Below are positions 20,470 through 28,433 of a stretch of DNA of 52,884 nucleotides, in pieces. Numbering within the stretch: the stretch's first letter is position 1; each line of letters opens with the position of its first letter. The translations under genes and the position numbers were made by a program. The notes under the pieces were generated by a model. The model saw only the letters and a list, made by a program, of their open reading frames with translations, was not told where the DNA came from and did not search any database. The stretch comes from an uncultured Muribaculaceae bacterium (GTDB lineage Bacteria > Bacteroidota > Bacteroidia > Bacteroidales > Muribaculaceae), in assembly GCA_947625935.1 (NCBI GenBank), contig CANQQE010000025.1, positions 1 to 52,884 on the forward strand, given 5' to 3'.

Positions 20470-20535
20470 CTTTCCTTGAAATTGTCCTCCTTTTGTCTTC
20501 CTAATCCGGAGGCAGCGGATTTTAATAAAAAACTT

Positions 20536-20739
20536 ATGACAAACGAACCTCCTAAAGTAACTGAAACTGGTCTGTATAGTGTGAAAGAGGCTGCAAAGCT
20601 TCTTGGAGTTAGTTGTAGCAAATTATACAATGCAATAAAACGTGGAGCAAGACGTGGTGGAATTGACGCCAGAGTGCGATGCGATAACGGACGTCTACAG
20701 TTTACGGGCAAAGAAATTCTCCGCTACTGGCGAGGATAG
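20536..20739 (+). CDS. Small helix-turn-helix (excisionase/MerR-like) DNA-binding protein
   Basis: A 67-residue protein starting at MTNEPPKVTETG. The in-frame ATG at 20476 adds residues read through the tRNA-proximal spacer and is less likely. The HTH is GLYSVKEAAKLLGVSCSKLYNAIKRG (about residues 12-37), followed by a wing-like RVRCDNGRLQFTGKEILRYWRG. This is the layout of excisionase/DUF3853-type proteins of Bacteroidales mobile elements. Next to a tRNA gene it may be a recombination directionality factor or regulator. No partner integrase is in the window. Confidence 0.65.
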   Translation: MTNEPPKVTETGLYSVKEAAKLLGVSCSKLYNAIKRGARRGGIDARVRCDNGRLQFTGKEILRYWRG

Positions 20740-21174: not shown

Positions 21175-22182
21175 TTATGATTTCTTGCCTTCGAGACGCT
21201 TTCTTTCTGCTTCGAAGGCTTCGAGGAAGTGGATTTCCACGGGAGATAGTTGATACTGGGTACGCTCACGGAATTTATCGTATTCTTCATTGGCTTTCAG
21301 CTTGGCAACTTCGACTGAGACGCTTCCGGCATGGTTCAGCAATTCCTTACCCGACAGCTTTAGGAAATCGTCAAGTTTCTGAATCCAGTCTTTCATATAC
21401 ATCGGGACATGACTCTTGGCCTGAAGTTCGGCAAAGTCAAGATATAGGTTGACGATTCGGTTGAGCATATCGACCTCCTCCTCCGAAAGATAATTCTTCG
21501 CTATCTCAGCCTCATGTTTGGTCGGCATGGCACCCCGCCATGTTGTCAGCCCCATGAAATCCTTTTCGGCATCGGCACGGTCATAGATAACCTCTGCGGC
21601 AGTATGTCCGTGGGCGGCAAAGTGCATCTTGTTTTGAACCGTCTTGAAGAACTGTTGAGTGATGGAGGTGCGAGGGTCATAGTCGATGCTGAGAGCATAA
21701 ATCTCCAGCACCTTACGATAGAACACCTTCTCCGAACTGCGGATGTCTCGGATGCGGGCCAACAATTCGTCGAAATAGTTTCCTTGTCCGGCATTTTTGA
21801 GCAAATCGTCATTAAGAACGAACCCCTTAATCATATACTCCTTCAGCACCTGAGTAGCCCACTGGCGGAACTGCACGCCTCGATGCGAGTTGACACGATA
21901 GCCCACGCTGATAATCATGTCAAGGTTATAAATGGAAATCTTACGCTCAACCTGTCGTTTCCCTTCCGTTTGAACTTGTGCAAAAAATGCACAAGTTGAA
22001 TCGGCGGCCAGCTCACCTTCATCATAGATTCTTTTGATATGTCGTTGTATGGTTGAGCGGTCGCGCTGAAACAGCTCAGCCATCTGGTCGGCCGTAAGCC
22101 ACACGGTTTCATTGGAGAGCCGAACCTCAATCTTCGTCTCTCCGCCCTGCGTCTGAAATAATATTATCTGTCCGTTGTCCAC
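21175..22182 (-). CDS. RhuM-family protein
   Basis: This 335-residue protein starts with GTG; the start G is also the last base of the res stop (TAGTG overlap). The N-terminal domain is a DNA-binding-like winged fold typical of RhuM (WLTADQMAELFQRDRSTIQRHIKRI), followed by FRQWATQVLKEYMIKGFVLND. The C-terminal helical part (KNYLSEEEVDMLNRIVNLYLDFAELQA) is also family-typical. RhuM was named in a Salmonella pathogenicity island; its biochemical role is not established. Tight coupling to res suggests it serves the restriction system, for example as a regulator or accessory toxin. That is inference. Confidence 0.85.
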   Translation of the reverse strand: MDNGQIILFQTQGGETKIEVRLSNETVWLTADQMAELFQRDRSTIQRHIKRIYDEGELAADSTCAFFAQVQTEGKRQVERKISIYNLDMIISVGYRVNSHRGVQFRQWATQVLKEYMIKGFVLNDDLLKNAGQGNYFDELLARIRDIRSSEKVFYRKVLEIYALSIDYDPRTSITQQFFKTVQNKMHFAAHGHTAAEVIYDRADAEKDFMGLTTWRGAMPTKHEAEIAKNYLSEEEVDMLNRIVNLYLDFAELQAKSHVPMYMKDWIQKLDDFLKLSGKELLNHAGSVSVEVAKLKANEEYDKFRERTQYQLSPVEIHFLEAFEAERKRLEGKKS

Positions 22183-24896
22183 TATTTGAGTTTAGATTGT
22201 TGGAGAATGTAGTTGAAAGAGTAGGAGCGGTCAACAAGCGTGTGCGGAATTATGACGTAACGCCAGGGTTTGCCACCGTTTTGTGCAGTAAACTCGGAGG
22301 CTCGGCAGGAGAACTCGCTGGCGGCTTCTGCTTTAGCCAGTACGTCCGGATTATTGACATCATTAGCCGCTTTGGTTTCGCACATATAGATAGCATTGGC
22401 AGTTTCCACAATGAAATCCGGCTCATATTTCTTCGCTCCGCTCGACCAGTAGATATTGAACTGATTGGGTATGGGGCGAATCCATTTAAGCACCTCGTCG
22501 TTGGTTTCGAGAATGAATGAAAAATCAAGCTCGGTGGAACTGTCGAAACGATATTTGGTGTAATAAGATTTTTTGAAGCCTACATATACAAACTTAACAA
22601 CGGTTGATTTCTGAGTCGGTACAGGCTCATGAAAATCTAATGTACCCCAGTTGTTGACAATAATTTGTTGATCGAGGATTTTGGAGAAAGGAAGAACCTT
22701 ATTGATTTTGAACTCTCCCGGGATAATGCGATAGTGCTCTTTCATCTGCTTATAAATGTTGTCTGCAAGACTTTGTTTGAAAGCGTGAACACGTTCATTC
22801 AAATCATCATCTGAGATGCCTGAAGCAATGTTGCGGATAGCATTGACGGCTTGACCGACAAGTTTATAAAGCAGGTCTGAAACCTCGTCATAATCCACAT
22901 CGTCAAAGTCGATAAGCGTAGTAATGAGCTGTTCAACAGCAGGTCGTTTTGAGCTACCGGATTTACCTGCGATAACCTCGAAGTCTGAGGAGTCATGCAG
23001 GCCTTGACGGATAATCTCGCGATGCAGTTCATCAAGATTGTAGCCTTTGGAAGTATCAAGATCGAAATCTTCAAAGATTGCTTTGACATTCTGCTGCTCA
23101 ACCACGATACGCGGTATCTCGATTACATTTCTCTTGTAATCCTCGACAACAATGTTGATTACTTCATCAACCTGTTCAATCTGTTCGGCAGCATCCTGCT
23201 CGGCGAAAAGGCTGCATTTGACACTTTCTTTGATTGTTGCAATGGCTTTTTCGCGAAGTTTTTCCTTTATATCTTTCTTTTGGAGGTCGCCATAAGAAGC
23301 GACTCCTTCGGCGGCAATGTTTGAAATGGCGGATTCCACAGCTTTACCAACTTGGGTAACATACTGTTTAGCCTTTTCGCTGATTTCTCCTTTGATCTTT
23401 TCAATCTGATTCTGAATCTTTTGCTCTGTTGATGTCGGAGTGGTTTCCACCCGACCGCCTTGGTCTCTTTCGTCGCGATCTTCAAGCTTGATAAAAGAGA
23501 CTCGTTTGAGAAGCGAATTGCCCTTATTGGCTTCGTCGATAACTTTCTGGAAATTATCATGTGCGATAACAGTAAGCGTGTCGACGTCCTTGTTGCCGGT
23601 GCGCTGTCCGCCGTAAGGCAAACGCAAACCACGTCCGATTGTCTGCTCGATAAGTATAGCCGCATTTGAAGCGCGGAGGGGGATAATCGTATAAAGATTG
23701 TTCACATCCCAGCCCTCTTTGAGCATATTGACGTGTACGACAATTTCTATTTCGTTGTCAGGCGATTCGAGCGCGACAAATTGACGTTCGATATCTTCAT
23801 CCTTTTTCGAGCTGCTGTCAATGCGTAATACCTTACCCTTGTATGCTCCGTGATAAATTCGGTCGCTTTGCAATAACTCCTCAACTGACTTGGCGTGGTT
23901 GATATCACGACAAGCCACCAAAATGAATGGTTTAACGAGGGGCTGACCGTTCTGCTTGGCATACATCTCTATGGCGAGTTTTGTTCGCTCATGACTGGTA
24001 ATTCCGTCTTCAAGCTTGATAATTTCTATCTCGTCCGGAGTGTAATTGTCTTTGTTGAAATTGCGAGCCTTGGCGATAGCCGGATTTTTGACGTAAAGGC
24101 CATCATCGAGAGCTTCGGCGAGGTTATATTCAAACACAATATTCTTAAAGGCTTTCCCTTTTTCATCGAAGGGTGTAGCCGTCATTTCAAAACCAAGTAT
24201 CGGACGAAGTTCATTTATGGCTTTTTTAGAGGCGTCGCCGTGGTAGCGGTGCGCTTCGTCCATAAGGATTACGAGGTCGGGGAGCGAAGCGAGGTAATCG
24301 AAGTACGACTGGCCGAGATATTCGGAAAGTCGGCGCATCCTCGGTTGAACGGTAACGCCTCCCTTTTTGGTTGTCTTATTCTCGGTGTTGAACTTGGAGA
24401 TATTGAAAATATTGATTTCAATATCCGAGAATAAGCTGCCGGTGCGCTCATTGTAATTCTCCCCGGTAACGATTCTCGGCGGTTTGCCGACAAATTCACT
24501 TATTCCCTTGAAAACATATTTTGAATAGGATTCGTCGCCGAAATCCTTTATCAACTTCTCGTAGAGCGTAAGATTAGGAGCGAGAACAAAGAAGTGCTTG
24601 ATTCCTTTTTTAAGATATAGATATGCTATGATTGCCCCCATCAGTCGAGTTTTTCCAATGCCGGTGGCAATTGAAAAGGCAAGCGAAGGGAAGTCACGGT
24701 CAAAACCTTTGACCGTCGGCACGATAGATTTTACCTTTGCAAGCTCATCCGCGATGAACATTTCGAGCATATCCGGGTCTGTCGGTGGTTTCTTCAAAGA
24801 GAGCATGTCGGTCAGACGTGCGGTAAGCTCCAATGCTTTCGCCAGCGGTTTGCGAAGTGAGAGCCTTTGACGTATGTAGTTAACCTGTGAATCCAT
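22182..24896 (-). CDS. Type III restriction endonuclease, Res subunit
   Basis: This 904-residue SF2 helicase-nuclease cleaves DNA in complex with Mod. Walker A is ATGIGKT (77-83), and the DEAH box is in ILMDEAHRYHG (213-216). Motif III is FEMTATPFD, and the helicase C-lobe has VNMLKEGWDVNNLY with IGRGLRLPYG. A C-terminal nuclease domain shows PD at 826-827 and ETK at 840-842, a PD-(D/E)xK site. All catalytic elements are present. Its start overlaps the membrane-protein stop (TAATG) and its stop overlaps the rhuM start, so all three cistrons are translationally coupled. In standard type III systems res follows mod directly; here a membrane gene intervenes. Confidence 0.92.
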   Translation of the reverse strand: MDSQVNYIRQRLSLRKPLAKALELTARLTDMLSLKKPPTDPDMLEMFIADELAKVKSIVPTVKGFDRDFPSLAFSIATGIGKTRLMGAIIAYLYLKKGIKHFFVLAPNLTLYEKLIKDFGDESYSKYVFKGISEFVGKPPRIVTGENYNERTGSLFSDIEINIFNISKFNTENKTTKKGGVTVQPRMRRLSEYLGQSYFDYLASLPDLVILMDEAHRYHGDASKKAINELRPILGFEMTATPFDEKGKAFKNIVFEYNLAEALDDGLYVKNPAIAKARNFNKDNYTPDEIEIIKLEDGITSHERTKLAIEMYAKQNGQPLVKPFILVACRDINHAKSVEELLQSDRIYHGAYKGKVLRIDSSSKKDEDIERQFVALESPDNEIEIVVHVNMLKEGWDVNNLYTIIPLRASNAAILIEQTIGRGLRLPYGGQRTGNKDVDTLTVIAHDNFQKVIDEANKGNSLLKRVSFIKLEDRDERDQGGRVETTPTSTEQKIQNQIEKIKGEISEKAKQYVTQVGKAVESAISNIAAEGVASYGDLQKKDIKEKLREKAIATIKESVKCSLFAEQDAAEQIEQVDEVINIVVEDYKRNVIEIPRIVVEQQNVKAIFEDFDLDTSKGYNLDELHREIIRQGLHDSSDFEVIAGKSGSSKRPAVEQLITTLIDFDDVDYDEVSDLLYKLVGQAVNAIRNIASGISDDDLNERVHAFKQSLADNIYKQMKEHYRIIPGEFKINKVLPFSKILDQQIIVNNWGTLDFHEPVPTQKSTVVKFVYVGFKKSYYTKYRFDSSTELDFSFILETNDEVLKWIRPIPNQFNIYWSSGAKKYEPDFIVETANAIYMCETKAANDVNNPDVLAKAEAASEFSCRASEFTAQNGGKPWRYVIIPHTLVDRSYSFNYILQQSKLK

Positions 24897-25624
24897 TATG
24901 AATTAATTTGCTCAATTAAACCATTTTTCACTCTTTGATTTACATCTTTAACGAGATGTTTATTTGCCACAAGTCTGTCAAACGCAAGGTAGACAAGGAA
25001 AGAAGCTGAAATCTCTTTAGGAAAAGAATCAACGTTATAATAGAAACTCTTAGAATATACAATAACCAAAAAGACAAAATACAACATATATATAAGATAT
25101 CTTATCGCTCCGACATCATATTCTGCTGAAATTTTTGCTCTTTCCTTAAAAAATTTTTTCGTTAACGTAATTCTAACGATCATATTACCAAATTTATGAT
25201 TTGAGGCAAGAATTGCAGCCAATGTATATGAAACGAAATAGATTAATTCATTAGGCAAATTATATTCGCCTAACGTACTAACTATTCTAAGAACAAAAAT
25301 ACATAATCCAGCTGGAAAGAGGACCACAAATAAAAAATACATTAATTGTTGATGCCAAGGTAAGATTATTCTCAATAGTTGGATAGGAAAATAGAGGATC
25401 GCCGAGATAATACTTGCAAATTTACATTTATCACTGAATATTAGTGACAAAAATAATGCAATTATATACCCGACAACACACAAAAACGCAACAACTTCTG
25501 ATACAACTTCTTTAGTATGTCCATTTGCAATCTGATATTTTATGGAATAGTATATTCCAATAATCAGAGTACATAATACTATAAGAAATAATGTATTTAT
25601 AAGATAATCTTTCAGCTTGCTCAT
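24896..25624 (-). CDS. Six-TM hypothetical membrane protein between mod and res
   Basis: This 242-residue protein is not recognised. Six hydrophobic segments are visible at about residues 7-28, 42-63, 69-89, 94-115, 125-143 and 178-198. A charged cytosolic loop (KKFFKERAKISAEYD) lies before the last one, and a soluble tail ends KDVNQRVKNGLIEQINS. It is very AT-rich compared with mod and res. Its ATG overlaps the mod stop (ATGA) and its stop overlaps the res start (TAATG), so it is built into the operon rather than merely inserted. It could be a membrane effector or sensor tied to restriction; no catalytic motif is seen. Confidence 0.75.
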   Translation of the reverse strand: MSKLKDYLINTLFLIVLCTLIIGIYYSIKYQIANGHTKEVVSEVVAFLCVVGYIIALFLSLIFSDKCKFASIISAILYFPIQLLRIILPWHQQLMYFLFVVLFPAGLCIFVLRIVSTLGEYNLPNELIYFVSYTLAAILASNHKFGNMIVRITLTKKFFKERAKISAEYDVGAIRYLIYMLYFVFLVIVYSKSFYYNVDSFPKEISASFLVYLAFDRLVANKHLVKDVNQRVKNGLIEQINS

Positions 25625-27492
25625 TCTTCAAATAGCTTGAGTTGGTTTTCTGAATCTTTTGCTGAGTGTGTTTCATCTTTCATCAACTCAGCAATATCAA
25701 TTACAGTATCTGTGTCGTCGATTTCGGGTACTGACACGATGTTGAGGGAATAATCGTCGTGGTCGAACTCGCAGGTGTTGAGGAGGACTTTGGGGATTTT
25801 CTTGATGGTAATGTTCGGGAACTTGTTGCGACACTCCGGCTGGAATTTGGTGCAGCAAATGAGCAGCGATTCATCTTCGCTCAACTGCTCGTGGATTGTT
25901 TCGAGCATTTCGGCTGTTATAAGTTGAGTCGTCGTGAAGATAAAGTCGTGCTCTGAGCTGTACCCCTGCTTCCAATATTGCTCAGTATCGGGCGAATATG
26001 TGAAGCCCTGATGCTTTGCCATAGCCGCTGCAAGCATATCGGCATTATACTCCTTATTGATAACAAGGTTGCCGTACTTATCCTTATTGAGAAGGCTCGG
26101 CGCAAGTTCATAGAACCTAAAGCCGCCACCGCCTTGCCAATCTTCATCACTTGTGATTCCTCCTTTGTCATCTCCGTCAACGACACGATTTAATCGCGGA
26201 GCACAGTGGGTGTATGCATGGTTCCCCATTTCGATACCAATCCATCGACGACCCATTTTATGAGCCGTAGCAGCGGTTGTTCCACTACCTAAAAAACTGT
26301 CGAGGACAAGTTCTCCTTGCTCTGTTAGCATAGATAGAATCTGCGCAATGAGCTTTTCAGGTTTCTTACCTTGTGGGAATTCGACGTTTCCTTCTTTGGT
26401 GAGATTTTTCATCCAAGCATTCATATCCCAATAAGTACCCTGCAAGTCTTTTTTATACAATTCGCCTTTGATTATAACAGAAGTATCTTTGAGCCATACA
26501 AACAGCCTACACTTATCGCCTTTATAAAATTGTTCATAAATTTTACCCTTATTTTTGCCAGTCTTTGGGACATACTCAATAGACAAAACGTCTTCATCCA
26601 AGTTCTGTTCTTCGCGATATTCTATAATACGAGTACGAATAGATGATTGAGCATTTGTGGTCTGGAATATATTAACTCCGTAACGCTTGTAGGCTTCTTT
26701 CTCTGATATTCCATCTTGTTTGGCAAGTTGGCCGATTGACTTAATAATTGGATTCTTGCGAATATACACTTTTATTTCATTGCCATCGCCATCAACAGTA
26801 GAGCCAGCATAAACTTTTTCGCCTGGGTTAATTAGAACAGAAGTGTATTTCCAACTACGCCCATCTTCTTTATACTGCTGAATTAGATCAGACATTTCAG
26901 TATAAGAATATGGTCCGTTGAAAAGTTGCATTTTATCGTAATCCTTTGCGTAAATAAGGATATATTCACAGTTCTTTTTCAATCGTTTGTCTTCACCGCC
27001 ACCAGATGCTCCCGCGATATTTTTCATATTCACGGAGATCATATTTACAAAATTGGAACGACCAAAGACCTCATCGCATAGTACTTTGAGATACGCTTGT
27101 TCTTCATCACTTATTTGTATAAATATAACACCATCGTCAGTCAACAGTCGGCGAAGAATCTCAAGGCGAGGTTTAATGCGAGAAAGCCAGATACTATGCT
27201 CTACAAAATCATCATAGTGAACATTCATAGCATCAACATTATATGGCGGGTCGATGTATATACATTTAACCGCACCTGTAAAGTTTGCCTCAAGTGCGCG
27301 AAGCGCGAGAAGATTATCGCCGTGAATGAGCATATTGCCGGGCCATGGCTTCCCATTGGGGAGTGTGCCGGTTTCGATCTCCCCAAAACTATATTCCGGG
27401 GTGTCAAGGAGCAAACGAGGCTCAATGGCAAGCGGCTCGTCATCCTTGCCAATCCACGTCAGTTCCAATTTATTTATCTTATTCTGTATCAT
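25621..27492 (-). CDS. Type III DNA-methyltransferase, Mod subunit
   Basis: This 623-residue N6-adenine methyltransferase also provides sequence recognition for Res. Catalytic motif IV DPPY is at 81-84, and SAM-binding motif I is SFLGSGTTAATAHKMG (near 399-414). Motif IV before motif I, with the target-recognition region between them (about 150-370), is the beta-class order used by type III Mod. The C-terminal region holds a long acidic tail. It lies three bases downstream of the membrane-anchored gene and overlaps the next gene by ATGA. The recognition sequence cannot be inferred. Confidence 0.92.
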   Translation of the reverse strand: MIQNKINKLELTWIGKDDEPLAIEPRLLLDTPEYSFGEIETGTLPNGKPWPGNMLIHGDNLLALRALEANFTGAVKCIYIDPPYNVDAMNVHYDDFVEHSIWLSRIKPRLEILRRLLTDDGVIFIQISDEEQAYLKVLCDEVFGRSNFVNMISVNMKNIAGASGGGEDKRLKKNCEYILIYAKDYDKMQLFNGPYSYTEMSDLIQQYKEDGRSWKYTSVLINPGEKVYAGSTVDGDGNEIKVYIRKNPIIKSIGQLAKQDGISEKEAYKRYGVNIFQTTNAQSSIRTRIIEYREEQNLDEDVLSIEYVPKTGKNKGKIYEQFYKGDKCRLFVWLKDTSVIIKGELYKKDLQGTYWDMNAWMKNLTKEGNVEFPQGKKPEKLIAQILSMLTEQGELVLDSFLGSGTTAATAHKMGRRWIGIEMGNHAYTHCAPRLNRVVDGDDKGGITSDEDWQGGGGFRFYELAPSLLNKDKYGNLVINKEYNADMLAAAMAKHQGFTYSPDTEQYWKQGYSSEHDFIFTTTQLITAEMLETIHEQLSEDESLLICCTKFQPECRNKFPNITIKKIPKVLLNTCEFDHDDYSLNIVSVPEIDDTDTVIDIAELMKDETHSAKDSENQLKLFEE

Positions 27493-27495
27493 TTA

Positions 27496-28248
27496 TTATT
27501 GTATCTGAGTAGATAATTGAGTGTCAAACTTTACTGATTCATTAATAGCGGCATATAGACCGTAGAAAGAATTGCAATCTGCCAAATATTGTTTATGTAG
27601 GTTCCCAAGTAGAATTAAAGTAAATAAACTTTTATCTTGGTTATATTCTTCATCTATTATCGTATCAATTTTTGGTATAGATTTATGAAATATGTGCGTT
27701 GTTAAATACTTTTTCAATAATTCTTTGTCTTTAAGCAAAAGGATTCCTTTAATTATGGCAAAAGAATCACTTAAAAAATCGGTGTGCCATGTGAAACATT
27801 TAGATTCCAAAGATTTTATGTTGTCTGAGGCTAAATCATAATGCATGAGGAAAATGAGGTGATTTTGTAATACTTTTTGTTGGTGTTCTTTTAGTGTCTT
27901 TTGAATTTCATTAAGATCACTACAAAAGGAAAGAATTTCAAATATGCTCTTGGGTAAATAAGTAATCCCACAACTTAAGCATACATTCTTGTATTCTTGT
28001 AACGATTCTTTCTTTATTTGTTCTTTGCGGGCCTTTCTGTTTTCTTTTAATGAATAATAGCATACTGCAGAAGGAACTATTATCGCTATTATCACGCCTA
28101 AATACGATGACCAAAATCTAAGCCAATCTATGCTATTTCCAACAATTGGAGTGAACCTGGGAATAAGCAATAGGAAGTTAACTCCAATAGGAATCAGAAC
28201 TATGACAAATAGATAGCACCACCAATATTTCTTAATTAAATCCATCAT
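27496..28248 (-). CDS. Membrane-anchored hypothetical protein at the head of the R-M operon
   Basis: A 250-residue protein, not assignable to a family by eye. Two N-terminal TM segments (about residues 8-30 and 45-66) are followed by a basic helix (ENRKARKEQIKKES) and a helical cytosolic domain of about 180 residues rich in Lys, Leu and Asp. This two-TM plus helical layout resembles membrane-anchored abortive-infection-type proteins; that is an analogy only. The ATG at 28248 is preferred over the TTG at 28260 because it overlaps the stop of the upstream helicase remnant (ATGA). It is AT-rich and ends three bases before mod. Confidence 0.7.
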   Translation of the reverse strand: MMDLIKKYWWCYLFVIVLIPIGVNFLLLIPRFTPIVGNSIDWLRFWSSYLGVIIAIIVPSAVCYYSLKENRKARKEQIKKESLQEYKNVCLSCGITYLPKSIFEILSFCSDLNEIQKTLKEHQQKVLQNHLIFLMHYDLASDNIKSLESKCFTWHTDFLSDSFAIIKGILLLKDKELLKKYLTTHIFHKSIPKIDTIIDEEYNQDKSLFTLILLGNLHKQYLADCNSFYGLYAAINESVKFDTQLSTQIQ

Positions 28249-28411
28249 ACTATCTTCCAATGAAAGGTTATTAATTTGGTTTGCCCAATCTTTTGGGCGA
28301 GCATTGCTTCGACTTTGGCGAGAAGATTTTCTTTCTTCTCGTCAACTTCATCGACAGACTCCTTGTAAGCCAATAAGCGAAATATTTCTGTTGCGCTGCG
28401 GTCAGCTCCAT
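28245..28411 (-). pseudogene. Remnant of an internally deleted SNF2-type helicase gene
   Basis: A ribosome binding site (AGGAG at 28422-28426) and ATG (28411) start MELTAAQQKYFAYWLTR, which resembles the N-terminus of large SNF2/DEAD helicases found with Bacteroidales type III R-M genes. At about 28361 the match jumps to another frame. It continues as ESVDEVDEKKENLLAKVEA and KLITFHWKIV up to a TGA at 28245-28247, resembling the C-terminus of the same helicases. About 17 N-terminal and 38 C-terminal codons therefore remain, with everything between deleted and the frame broken. The terminal TGA still overlaps the next gene's ATG. The family identification rests on remembered similarity. Confidence 0.6.
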
Positions 28412-28433
28412 ATATAAAAAACTCCTGCGGCAG

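What the first reader, a model, noticed from the sequence alone, without database searches (positions are those of the whole stretch)
21175..28248. Type III R-M operon with membrane proteins built in before mod and between mod and res
Seen: five minus-strand genes joined by a 3-bp gap, ATGA, TAATG and TAGTG overlaps, in the order two-TM protein, Mod, six-TM protein, Res, RhuM. Both membrane genes are markedly AT-rich. Known: type III systems normally have mod directly followed by res. Inference: the membrane proteins may be part of the defence mechanism, for example a membrane-targeting effector released when restriction fails, or an anchor bringing the complex to incoming DNA. I know of no described system with this exact layout.
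Basis: partly seen in the sequence, partly recalled or inferred. Interest (0 to 1): 0.8.

Follow-up and report, generated by a model that had tools for sequence, protein, structure and literature searches.

The report
Type III restriction operon with swappable cargo
A gut bacterium's DNA-cutting defence operon carries two membrane-protein genes in places where related operons carry other anti-virus genes, so they are probably exchangeable extra weapons rather than parts of the cutting machine.

Summary
In detail: five packed genes, 2-TM protein, Mod, multi-TM protein, Res, RhuM. The layout is slot filling, not a unique system. In relatives the core is helicase-mod-res, a known type III variant (PMC8259958); the window keeps only a helicase scar. 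The mod-res gap is a cargo slot: of 31 loci (window included) 18 are filled, 13 empty. Fifteen of the 18 hold PADLOC-listed families (Septu, HEC-01, PDC-M29, PDC-S02, PDC-M04); the rest hold a SIR2-like gene, a Bro-like gene and the window's 6-TM gene. Cargo changes 16 times on a tree of 34 Res, though empty loci cluster. The 6-TM protein has no convincing relative in the searches run. The 2-TM protein has: its N-terminal hairpin module lies in R-M loci of types I, II, IIG and III (10 of 14 matches in 398 genomes) and, in at least 10 of 21 viral-collection contigs, just upstream of terminase or HNH genes. Both are most likely exchangeable accessory defence genes, not R-M subunits. New variant of a known kind; the 2-TM module is the most interesting part.

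The parts
28245..28429 (-). Scar of an SNF2/DrmD-like helicase gene: first about 19 codons joined, out of frame, to the last about 36 codons; about 2.7 kb missing relative to relatives
   Evidence: DNA matches 28478-28355 and 28352-28223 lie about 2.7 kb apart in L006 (791-917 and 3669-3796), in its helicase gene; same pattern in others; helicase named by PADLOC/Pfam in L009
27496..28248 (-). 2-TM protein P0001 (250 aa), slot 1: N-terminal TM hairpin module plus a C-terminal part that probably faces the cytosol
   Evidence: module family; contexts
25621..27492 (-). Mod (623 aa), type III beta-class methyltransferase, C-tail ends QLKLFEE
   Evidence: Pfam N6_N4_Mtase 3.2e-43, PADLOC MTase_III 1.3e-153; PDB relatives 6k0w Mod and EcoP15I Mod; motifs
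24896..25624 (-). Multi-TM (5-7 helices) orphan protein P0002 (242 aa), slot 2 cargo
   Evidence: no family, and no convincing relative:
22182..24896 (-). Res (904 aa), type III restriction helicase-nuclease
   Evidence: Pfam ResIII 8.3e-21, PADLOC REase_III 3.5e-161; motifs
21175..22182 (-). RhuM (335 aa), slot 3; PADLOC candidate PDC-S05
   Evidence: Pfam 6.6e-116, PADLOC 2.7e-150; also behind res in L012 and L030, fragment in L017
20350..20425 (+). tRNA-Lys bordering the AT-rich island
   Evidence: G+C profile

Best explanation
This is a type III R-M operon of the helicase-mod-res kind that has lost its helicase. Its gaps (before mod, between mod and res, after res) are cargo slots into which defence genes are swapped as co-oriented cassettes. 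The 6-TM gene is one such cassette: a one-gene accessory defence protein, most likely a membrane-acting effector that backs up restriction on its own. The 2-TM gene is another: a membrane-anchored accessory with a general N-terminal hairpin module and a varying C-terminal part that probably faces the cytosol. RhuM is a third, previously proposed to be a toxin. Shown: slot structure, exchange of cargo, recurrence of the 2-TM module in R-M loci, catalytic motifs in Mod and Res. Inferred: co-transcription, defence activity of the two membrane proteins, membrane-acting mechanism.
For: Mod-res gap in 31 distinct loci: 18 filled, 13 empty. 15 of the 18 hold PADLOC-listed families, six by direct HMM test (L006, L008, L012, L015, L065, L066) and nine by BLASTP to those. 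Cargo changes 16 times on a tree of 34 Res; shuffled mean 17.5, as low in 17 of 200. Empty counterpart L007: Mod 91%, Res 90% identical. The 2-TM gene lies in R-M loci in 10 of 14 matches across 398 genomes, among them between hsdS and hsdR. R-M operons with embedded toxins or defence genes are known (PMC12255303, PMC3710099, PMC12707154; passages).
Against: No convincing homologue of the 6-TM protein was found, so its defence role rests on position alone. Empty slots are clustered on the Res tree (6 changes, shuffled mean 11.5, as low in 1 of 500) and the slot was empty in 11 of 11 readable loci outside Bacteroidales, so filling is a habit of one lineage. Slot 2 was also filled once by a Bro-like gene with no defence label (L071) and once by a SIR2-like gene that PADLOC does not name (L011). 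No function was measured. The AlphaFold2 model of P0002 is too poor to use (pLDDT 51, pTM 0.26). The helicase loss may mean that the operon is decaying.
Confidence: 0.66

Rival explanations
1. The membrane proteins are working subunits of this R-M system: they anchor Mod-Res at the inner membrane to meet DNA as it enters, as the membrane-bound nuclease SNIPE does alone.
For: Tight overlaps with mod and res. The 2-TM module recurs beside R-M enzymes of several types. A membrane-anchored nuclease that cuts DNA at injection exists (PMC13190303, passages).
Against: Nearly the same Mod-Res pairs occur without either gene (L007) or with cargo that has no TM helix by the scan. The 2-TM module has no single R-M partner and also occurs in viral-collection contigs.
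Confidence: 0.12
2. PrrC-like guard: the 6-TM protein is a membrane toxin held inactive by Mod or Res and released when a phage blocks restriction.
For: PrrC embedded in a type I locus works so (passages in PMC12707154 and PMC3710099).
Against: Cargo swaps among Res relatives about 90% identical, and the Mod tails do not sort by cargo by eye. No inhibitor contact was tested.
Confidence: 0.12
3. The 6-TM gene is a passenger ORFan with no defence role, caught in a recombination hotspot.
For: No convincing homologue in any search; G+C 29%.
Against: Packed against mod and res and open for 242 codons. Other occupants are nearly all defence genes.
Confidence: 0.1

Closest known systems
Three-gene type III R-M systems with an SF2 helicase 5' of mod (Eco86II, BspHIV; PMC8259958)
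   Same: Helicase, then mod, then res is the core in relatives (helicase in 18 of 28 loci with sequence upstream of mod)
   Different: The window's helicase is only a scar; cargo sits between mod and res, which the abstract, passages and section 17 seen of that paper do not describe. Homology of the two helicases was not tested
Defence genes embedded in R-M operons (DarTG2 between hsdS and hsdR, PMC12255303; PrrC in EcoprrI, PMC12707154; 'guilt-by-embedding', Payne et al. 2024 preprint, seen only as cited)
   Same: Defence genes inside an R-M operon at a recurrent place
   Different: Here type III, between mod and res, with many alternative cargos in one lineage; the 6-TM cargo is new to the libraries searched
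RhuM / PDC-S05
   Same: Window gene is a full-length match; RhuM beside R-M genes is described and proposed a toxin (PMC3710099, passages)
   Different: Here directly overlapping res of a type III operon
SNIPE (membrane-bound nuclease, PMC13190303)
   Same: N-terminal membrane anchor plus cytosolic part; N-terminal part variable between homologues
   Different: No DUF4041 or GIY-YIG match in P0001; no evidence of nuclease activity

Membership tests
Type III R-M system | Beta-class Mod with DPPY before FxGxG | tested here: met
   DPPY at 81, FLGSG at 400; PADLOC MTase_III 1.3e-153
Type III R-M system | Res with SF2 helicase motifs and C-terminal PD-(D/E)XK | tested here: met
   GIGKT 79, DEAH 213, QTIGRGLR 418, PDFIVETANAIYMCETK 826
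Type III R-M system | mod directly followed by res | tested here: not met
   A 729-bp gene lies between. The order is mod-X-res in 18 of 31 loci, so this is a variant of the usual order
Type III R-M system | Site-specific methylation and ATP-dependent cleavage | not testable with these tools
   No methylome or activity data
Helicase-type type III (Eco86II kind) | SF2 helicase gene 5' of mod | tested here: not met
   Only a scar in the window; present in 18 of 28 loci
DISARM / BREX / Hma | Full gene set beyond a DrmD- or HmaA-like helicase | tested here: not met
   The relatives' helicase is DrmD-like. Among the five operon proteins scanned no DISARM, BREX or Hma name is shown; for Mod and RhuM only the best 25 of 66 and of 40 families were listed
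Embedded defence gene | Co-oriented, replaceable gene inside a defence operon | tested here: met
Embedded defence gene | Own anti-phage activity | not testable with these tools
   No phage assay
Known defence or Pfam families for P0001 and P0002 | Profile match above cut-off | tested here: not met
   Pfam, PADLOC, NCBIfam; PHROGs, only weak matches for P0001

The most novel reading that the evidence does not exclude
The roughly 70-residue 2-TM hairpin of P0001 is an undescribed, general membrane module of bacterial immunity: one anchor with swappable cytosolic domains, used by R-M systems of types I, II, IIG and III and by phages next to their packaging genes. It may tie defence to the membrane at DNA entry or trigger membrane damage when restriction fails. 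The 6-TM protein would be a second, lineage-specific membrane effector in the same operon.
Probability: 0.4. Interest if true: 0.75.

Novelty: new variant of a known kind. Interest (0 to 1): 0.52.

Why it matters
The mod-res gap of this lineage works as a natural trap for defence genes, so unknown cargo there is a short list of candidates for test; the 6-TM gene is one. The 2-TM module, without a match above cut-off in the Pfam, NCBIfam and PADLOC copies used for P0001, joins R-M systems of several types with phage-like contigs and makes the idea of membrane-linked restriction testable with one small gene.

Tried and rejected
Rejected: a unique new system, because relatives show the layout is slot filling. 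Rejected: a co-evolved subunit role for the 6-TM gene, because of the empty site and the swaps. Rejected: Mod C-tails matched to cargo; they vary, also in the empty L007, and do not sort by cargo by eye. Rejected: 2-TM and 6-TM proteins being relatives (hhalign 0.85%). Weak tblastn matches of P0002 (G305, E 5.5e-4, 20 bits; G434, G676, G688, E 0.004-0.006, about 17 bits) were taken as composition matches; this is a judgement, and the G305 one lies in a 538-aa frame.

Led nowhere: P0002 against PDB sequences, plasmids, phages and viral contigs; P0001 against PDB sequences, plasmids and phages. Same-genus genomes for an empty site: the left flank gene is there (52-58% identical) with no tRNA found beside it, and the right flank gene has at best 38-39% matches on other contigs, so there is no clean empty site of the island. 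No second copy of the tRNA 3' end in the window. AlphaFold2 of P0002 was too poor for a fold search, so none was run; AlphaFold2 of P0001 with A1 was never accepted (server busy).

Rows dropped before counts: L048-L055, L057 and L061 (taken as the same contigs as earlier loci, from equal contig lengths and gene contents); L010 and L062 (no complete mod on the stretch), L027 and L064 (partial res) from the 31. Outside Bacteroidales, six genome loci and six of 24 plasmid records were opened; L092 (mod broken by insertion sequences) was set aside, leaving 11. The Res tree has 34 rows: the 31 less L071, plus L010, L020, L021 and L022; it is a quick tree with long branches and 6 open forks, and L026, L028, L029 and L063 have half or less of the columns filled.

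Full report
OBSERVATION. The five minus-strand genes are real and packed as described. Mod and Res keep their catalytic motifs and are named by Pfam and PADLOC; Mod matches EcoP15I Mod in the PDB, Res matches no solved chain at E 0.001. The membrane genes have 30.5% and 29.1% G+C against 42-48% for the other three and 55% and 59% for two flanking genes. Neither membrane protein has a family above cut-off in Pfam, PADLOC or NCBIfam; in PHROGs P0001 has weak matches (best E 2e-4) and P0002 none.

WHERE IT LIES. The best-matched relative (L006) is titled Muribaculaceae, and its contig has the length of the contig of G546, a same-family genome, so the window is probably Muribaculaceae. The operon sits in an AT-rich island next to a tRNA-Lys.

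THE CORE OPERON. One scan of genome contigs with Res gave 24 loci; searches of 398 family and 393 order genomes gave 19 and 9 genomes with matches at E 1e-100 or better, window's own included in both; one viral-collection contig came. After removing copies and partial loci, 31 loci (30 from Bacteroidales plus that contig, L030) show both the end of mod and the start of res. An SNF2-type helicase gene, 971 aa in many of them and DrmD-like by PADLOC in the two tested, lies upstream of mod in 18 of 28 loci with upstream sequence (one of them, L018, cut by the contig end). It is there in L020-L022 (Bacillota) and was not seen in L023-L025, whose stretches are short or differ; five plasmid loci carry an annotated SNF2-related gene. 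A helicase gene 5' of mod is described for Eco86II and BspHIV (PMC8259958; abstract, passages and section 17 seen). In the window this gene is a scar: about 19 first codons joined out of frame to about 36 last ones. I describe it only. L007 also keeps only a short match to the helicase end.

THE MOD-RES SLOT. 18 of 31 loci are filled: HEC-01 three (in L016 the second gene is broken), PDC-M29 four (its second gene matches PADLOC only at E 0.002), Septu three, PDC-S02/YhcG three, PDC-M04 two, making 15 in PADLOC-listed families; one SIR2-like gene (Pfam E 0.003, below its cut-off, no PADLOC name), one Bro-like gene judged by eye (L071), and the window's 6-TM gene. 13 are empty. Of the 15, L006, L008, L012, L015, L065 and L066 were tested by HMM; nine were assigned by BLASTP to representatives. 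Outside Bacteroidales the slot was empty in 11 of 11 readable loci (six Bacillota, five plasmids). In the closer relatives DNA similarity to the window stops at about Mod codon 593 and resumes at the res start. It stops at the same place in the empty L007, so the variable Mod tail is not a mark of cargo exchange. On a quick tree of 34 Res the cargo label changes 16 times; shuffles give 17.5, as low in 17 of 200. Single cargo types are scattered (YhcG least so: 2 changes, as low in 41 of 500), but 'empty' is clustered (6 changes, shuffled mean 11.5, as low in 1 of 500). The nearest Res proteins of the window carry HEC-01 (L006, 92% identical) and PDC-M29 (L029, partial), with L006, L029 and the window in one starred set.

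THE 6-TM PROTEIN. No relative in 393 order and 398 family genomes beyond weak matches, in plasmids, phages or viral contigs or in the slots of relatives. Its role is inferred from place: nearly every other occupant is a defence gene, so I take it for a one-gene accessory defence protein, probably acting at the membrane.

THE 2-TM PROTEIN. A search of 398 family genomes gave 14 matches in 13 genomes. Ten lie in R-M loci: four of this type III kind (window, G689, G646, G139), one between hsdS and hsdR (G418), one near an Eco57I-type methylase with a ResIII domain (G431), one beside an MmeI-like enzyme (G761), and three beside a Vsr-like gene with a C5 or D12 methyltransferase nearby (G446, G500, and a second one in the window's own genome, weak but E 7.6e-13). 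Two are at contig edges, one (G673) is not by R-M genes, one (G605) looks spurious. Enzymes were HMM-tested, except that Vsr beside G500 and the own-genome copy was read by eye. In the type III set the module is in slot 1 of 7 of 28 loci (window, L012, L015, L017, L018, L030, L059); 21 lack it. Slot 1 of L008 and L013 holds a different 2-TM protein that the profile does not match. Twelve module proteins (eleven from R-M loci, one, L080, not) share an N-terminal hairpin of about 70 residues with invariant P20, W42 and F45; the C-terminal parts diverge. A viral-contig scan found the module in 21 loci. A profile built from the twelve rows alone recovers all 21 at E 5.4e-7 or better, also L030, L075, L079 and L081, and no reversed decoy among 5,486 frames; since the 21 were first picked with a pattern from the same alignment, this is a check of consistency. 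Fourteen of the 21 against the twelve: hhalign 98.9%, E 1.8e-17 over 68 columns. In 10 of the 21, chosen by eye because they looked so, the first or second gene downstream is a terminase small subunit or HNH nuclease by PHROGs; the other 11 were not tested. Lysines before TM1 and a basic stretch after TM2 suggest that both ends of P0001 are cytosolic (inference). No control for chance closeness to R-M genes was run; my rough estimate for a random gene is a few percent.

RHUM. Full length in the window; behind res also in L012 and L030, a fragment in L017. It was proposed to be a toxin in R-M neighbourhoods (PMC3710099, passages).

READING. The operon is best seen as an R-M core with exchangeable defence cargo. 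Embedding of defence genes in R-M operons is known: DarTG2 between hsdS and hsdR (PMC12255303, passages), PrrC in EcoprrI (PMC12707154, passages), and a 'guilt-by-embedding' survey seen only as cited. In the listings seen of four searches for mod-res cargo in type III systems (two of them list only 10 of 1,383 and 8 of 27 papers) no title or abstract start describes it. The library holds no bioRxiv preprints, so this is not proof of novelty. What seems new is the slot in type III operons of Bacteroidales, the orphan 6-TM cargo and the breadth of the 2-TM module. The odds of the three rivals were lowered slightly in checking, only so that all add to one.

Noticed in passing
window 25621-25720; Mods of 34 loci: Mod C-tails are acidic and 23 of 34 have LF within the last 14 residues (2.2% in random 14-mers of the same proteins; the Mods are related, so not independent). 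Window QLKLF and L021/L022 QLELF resemble the sliding-clamp binding motif (recalled).
   Followed up: partly
L018 1916-7980: One operon (Phocaeicola) carries HEC-01 before mod and Septu between mod and res.
   Followed up: no
L030 (IMG/VR contig of 70 kb): A contig of the viral collection carries helicase, 2-TM gene, mod, res and RhuM, so the island may travel on a mobile element.
   Followed up: no
L072 (own genome C97): A second, distant Mod-Res pair (Res 34-37% identical) with no cargo between, in the same genome.
   Followed up: no
L081 (own genome C45): A second 2-TM gene beside a Vsr-like gene (by eye) and a C5 methyltransferase in the same genome; the first match lies in a 54-aa frame, so the gene may be broken.
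   Followed up: partly
window 20476-20739 (+): Small excisionase-like HTH gene next to tRNA-Lys (TIGR01764, 25.2 bits, below its cut-off of 28.8).
   Followed up: no
L116 5890-9248: A viral-collection contig with two 2-TM module genes close together.
   Followed up: no
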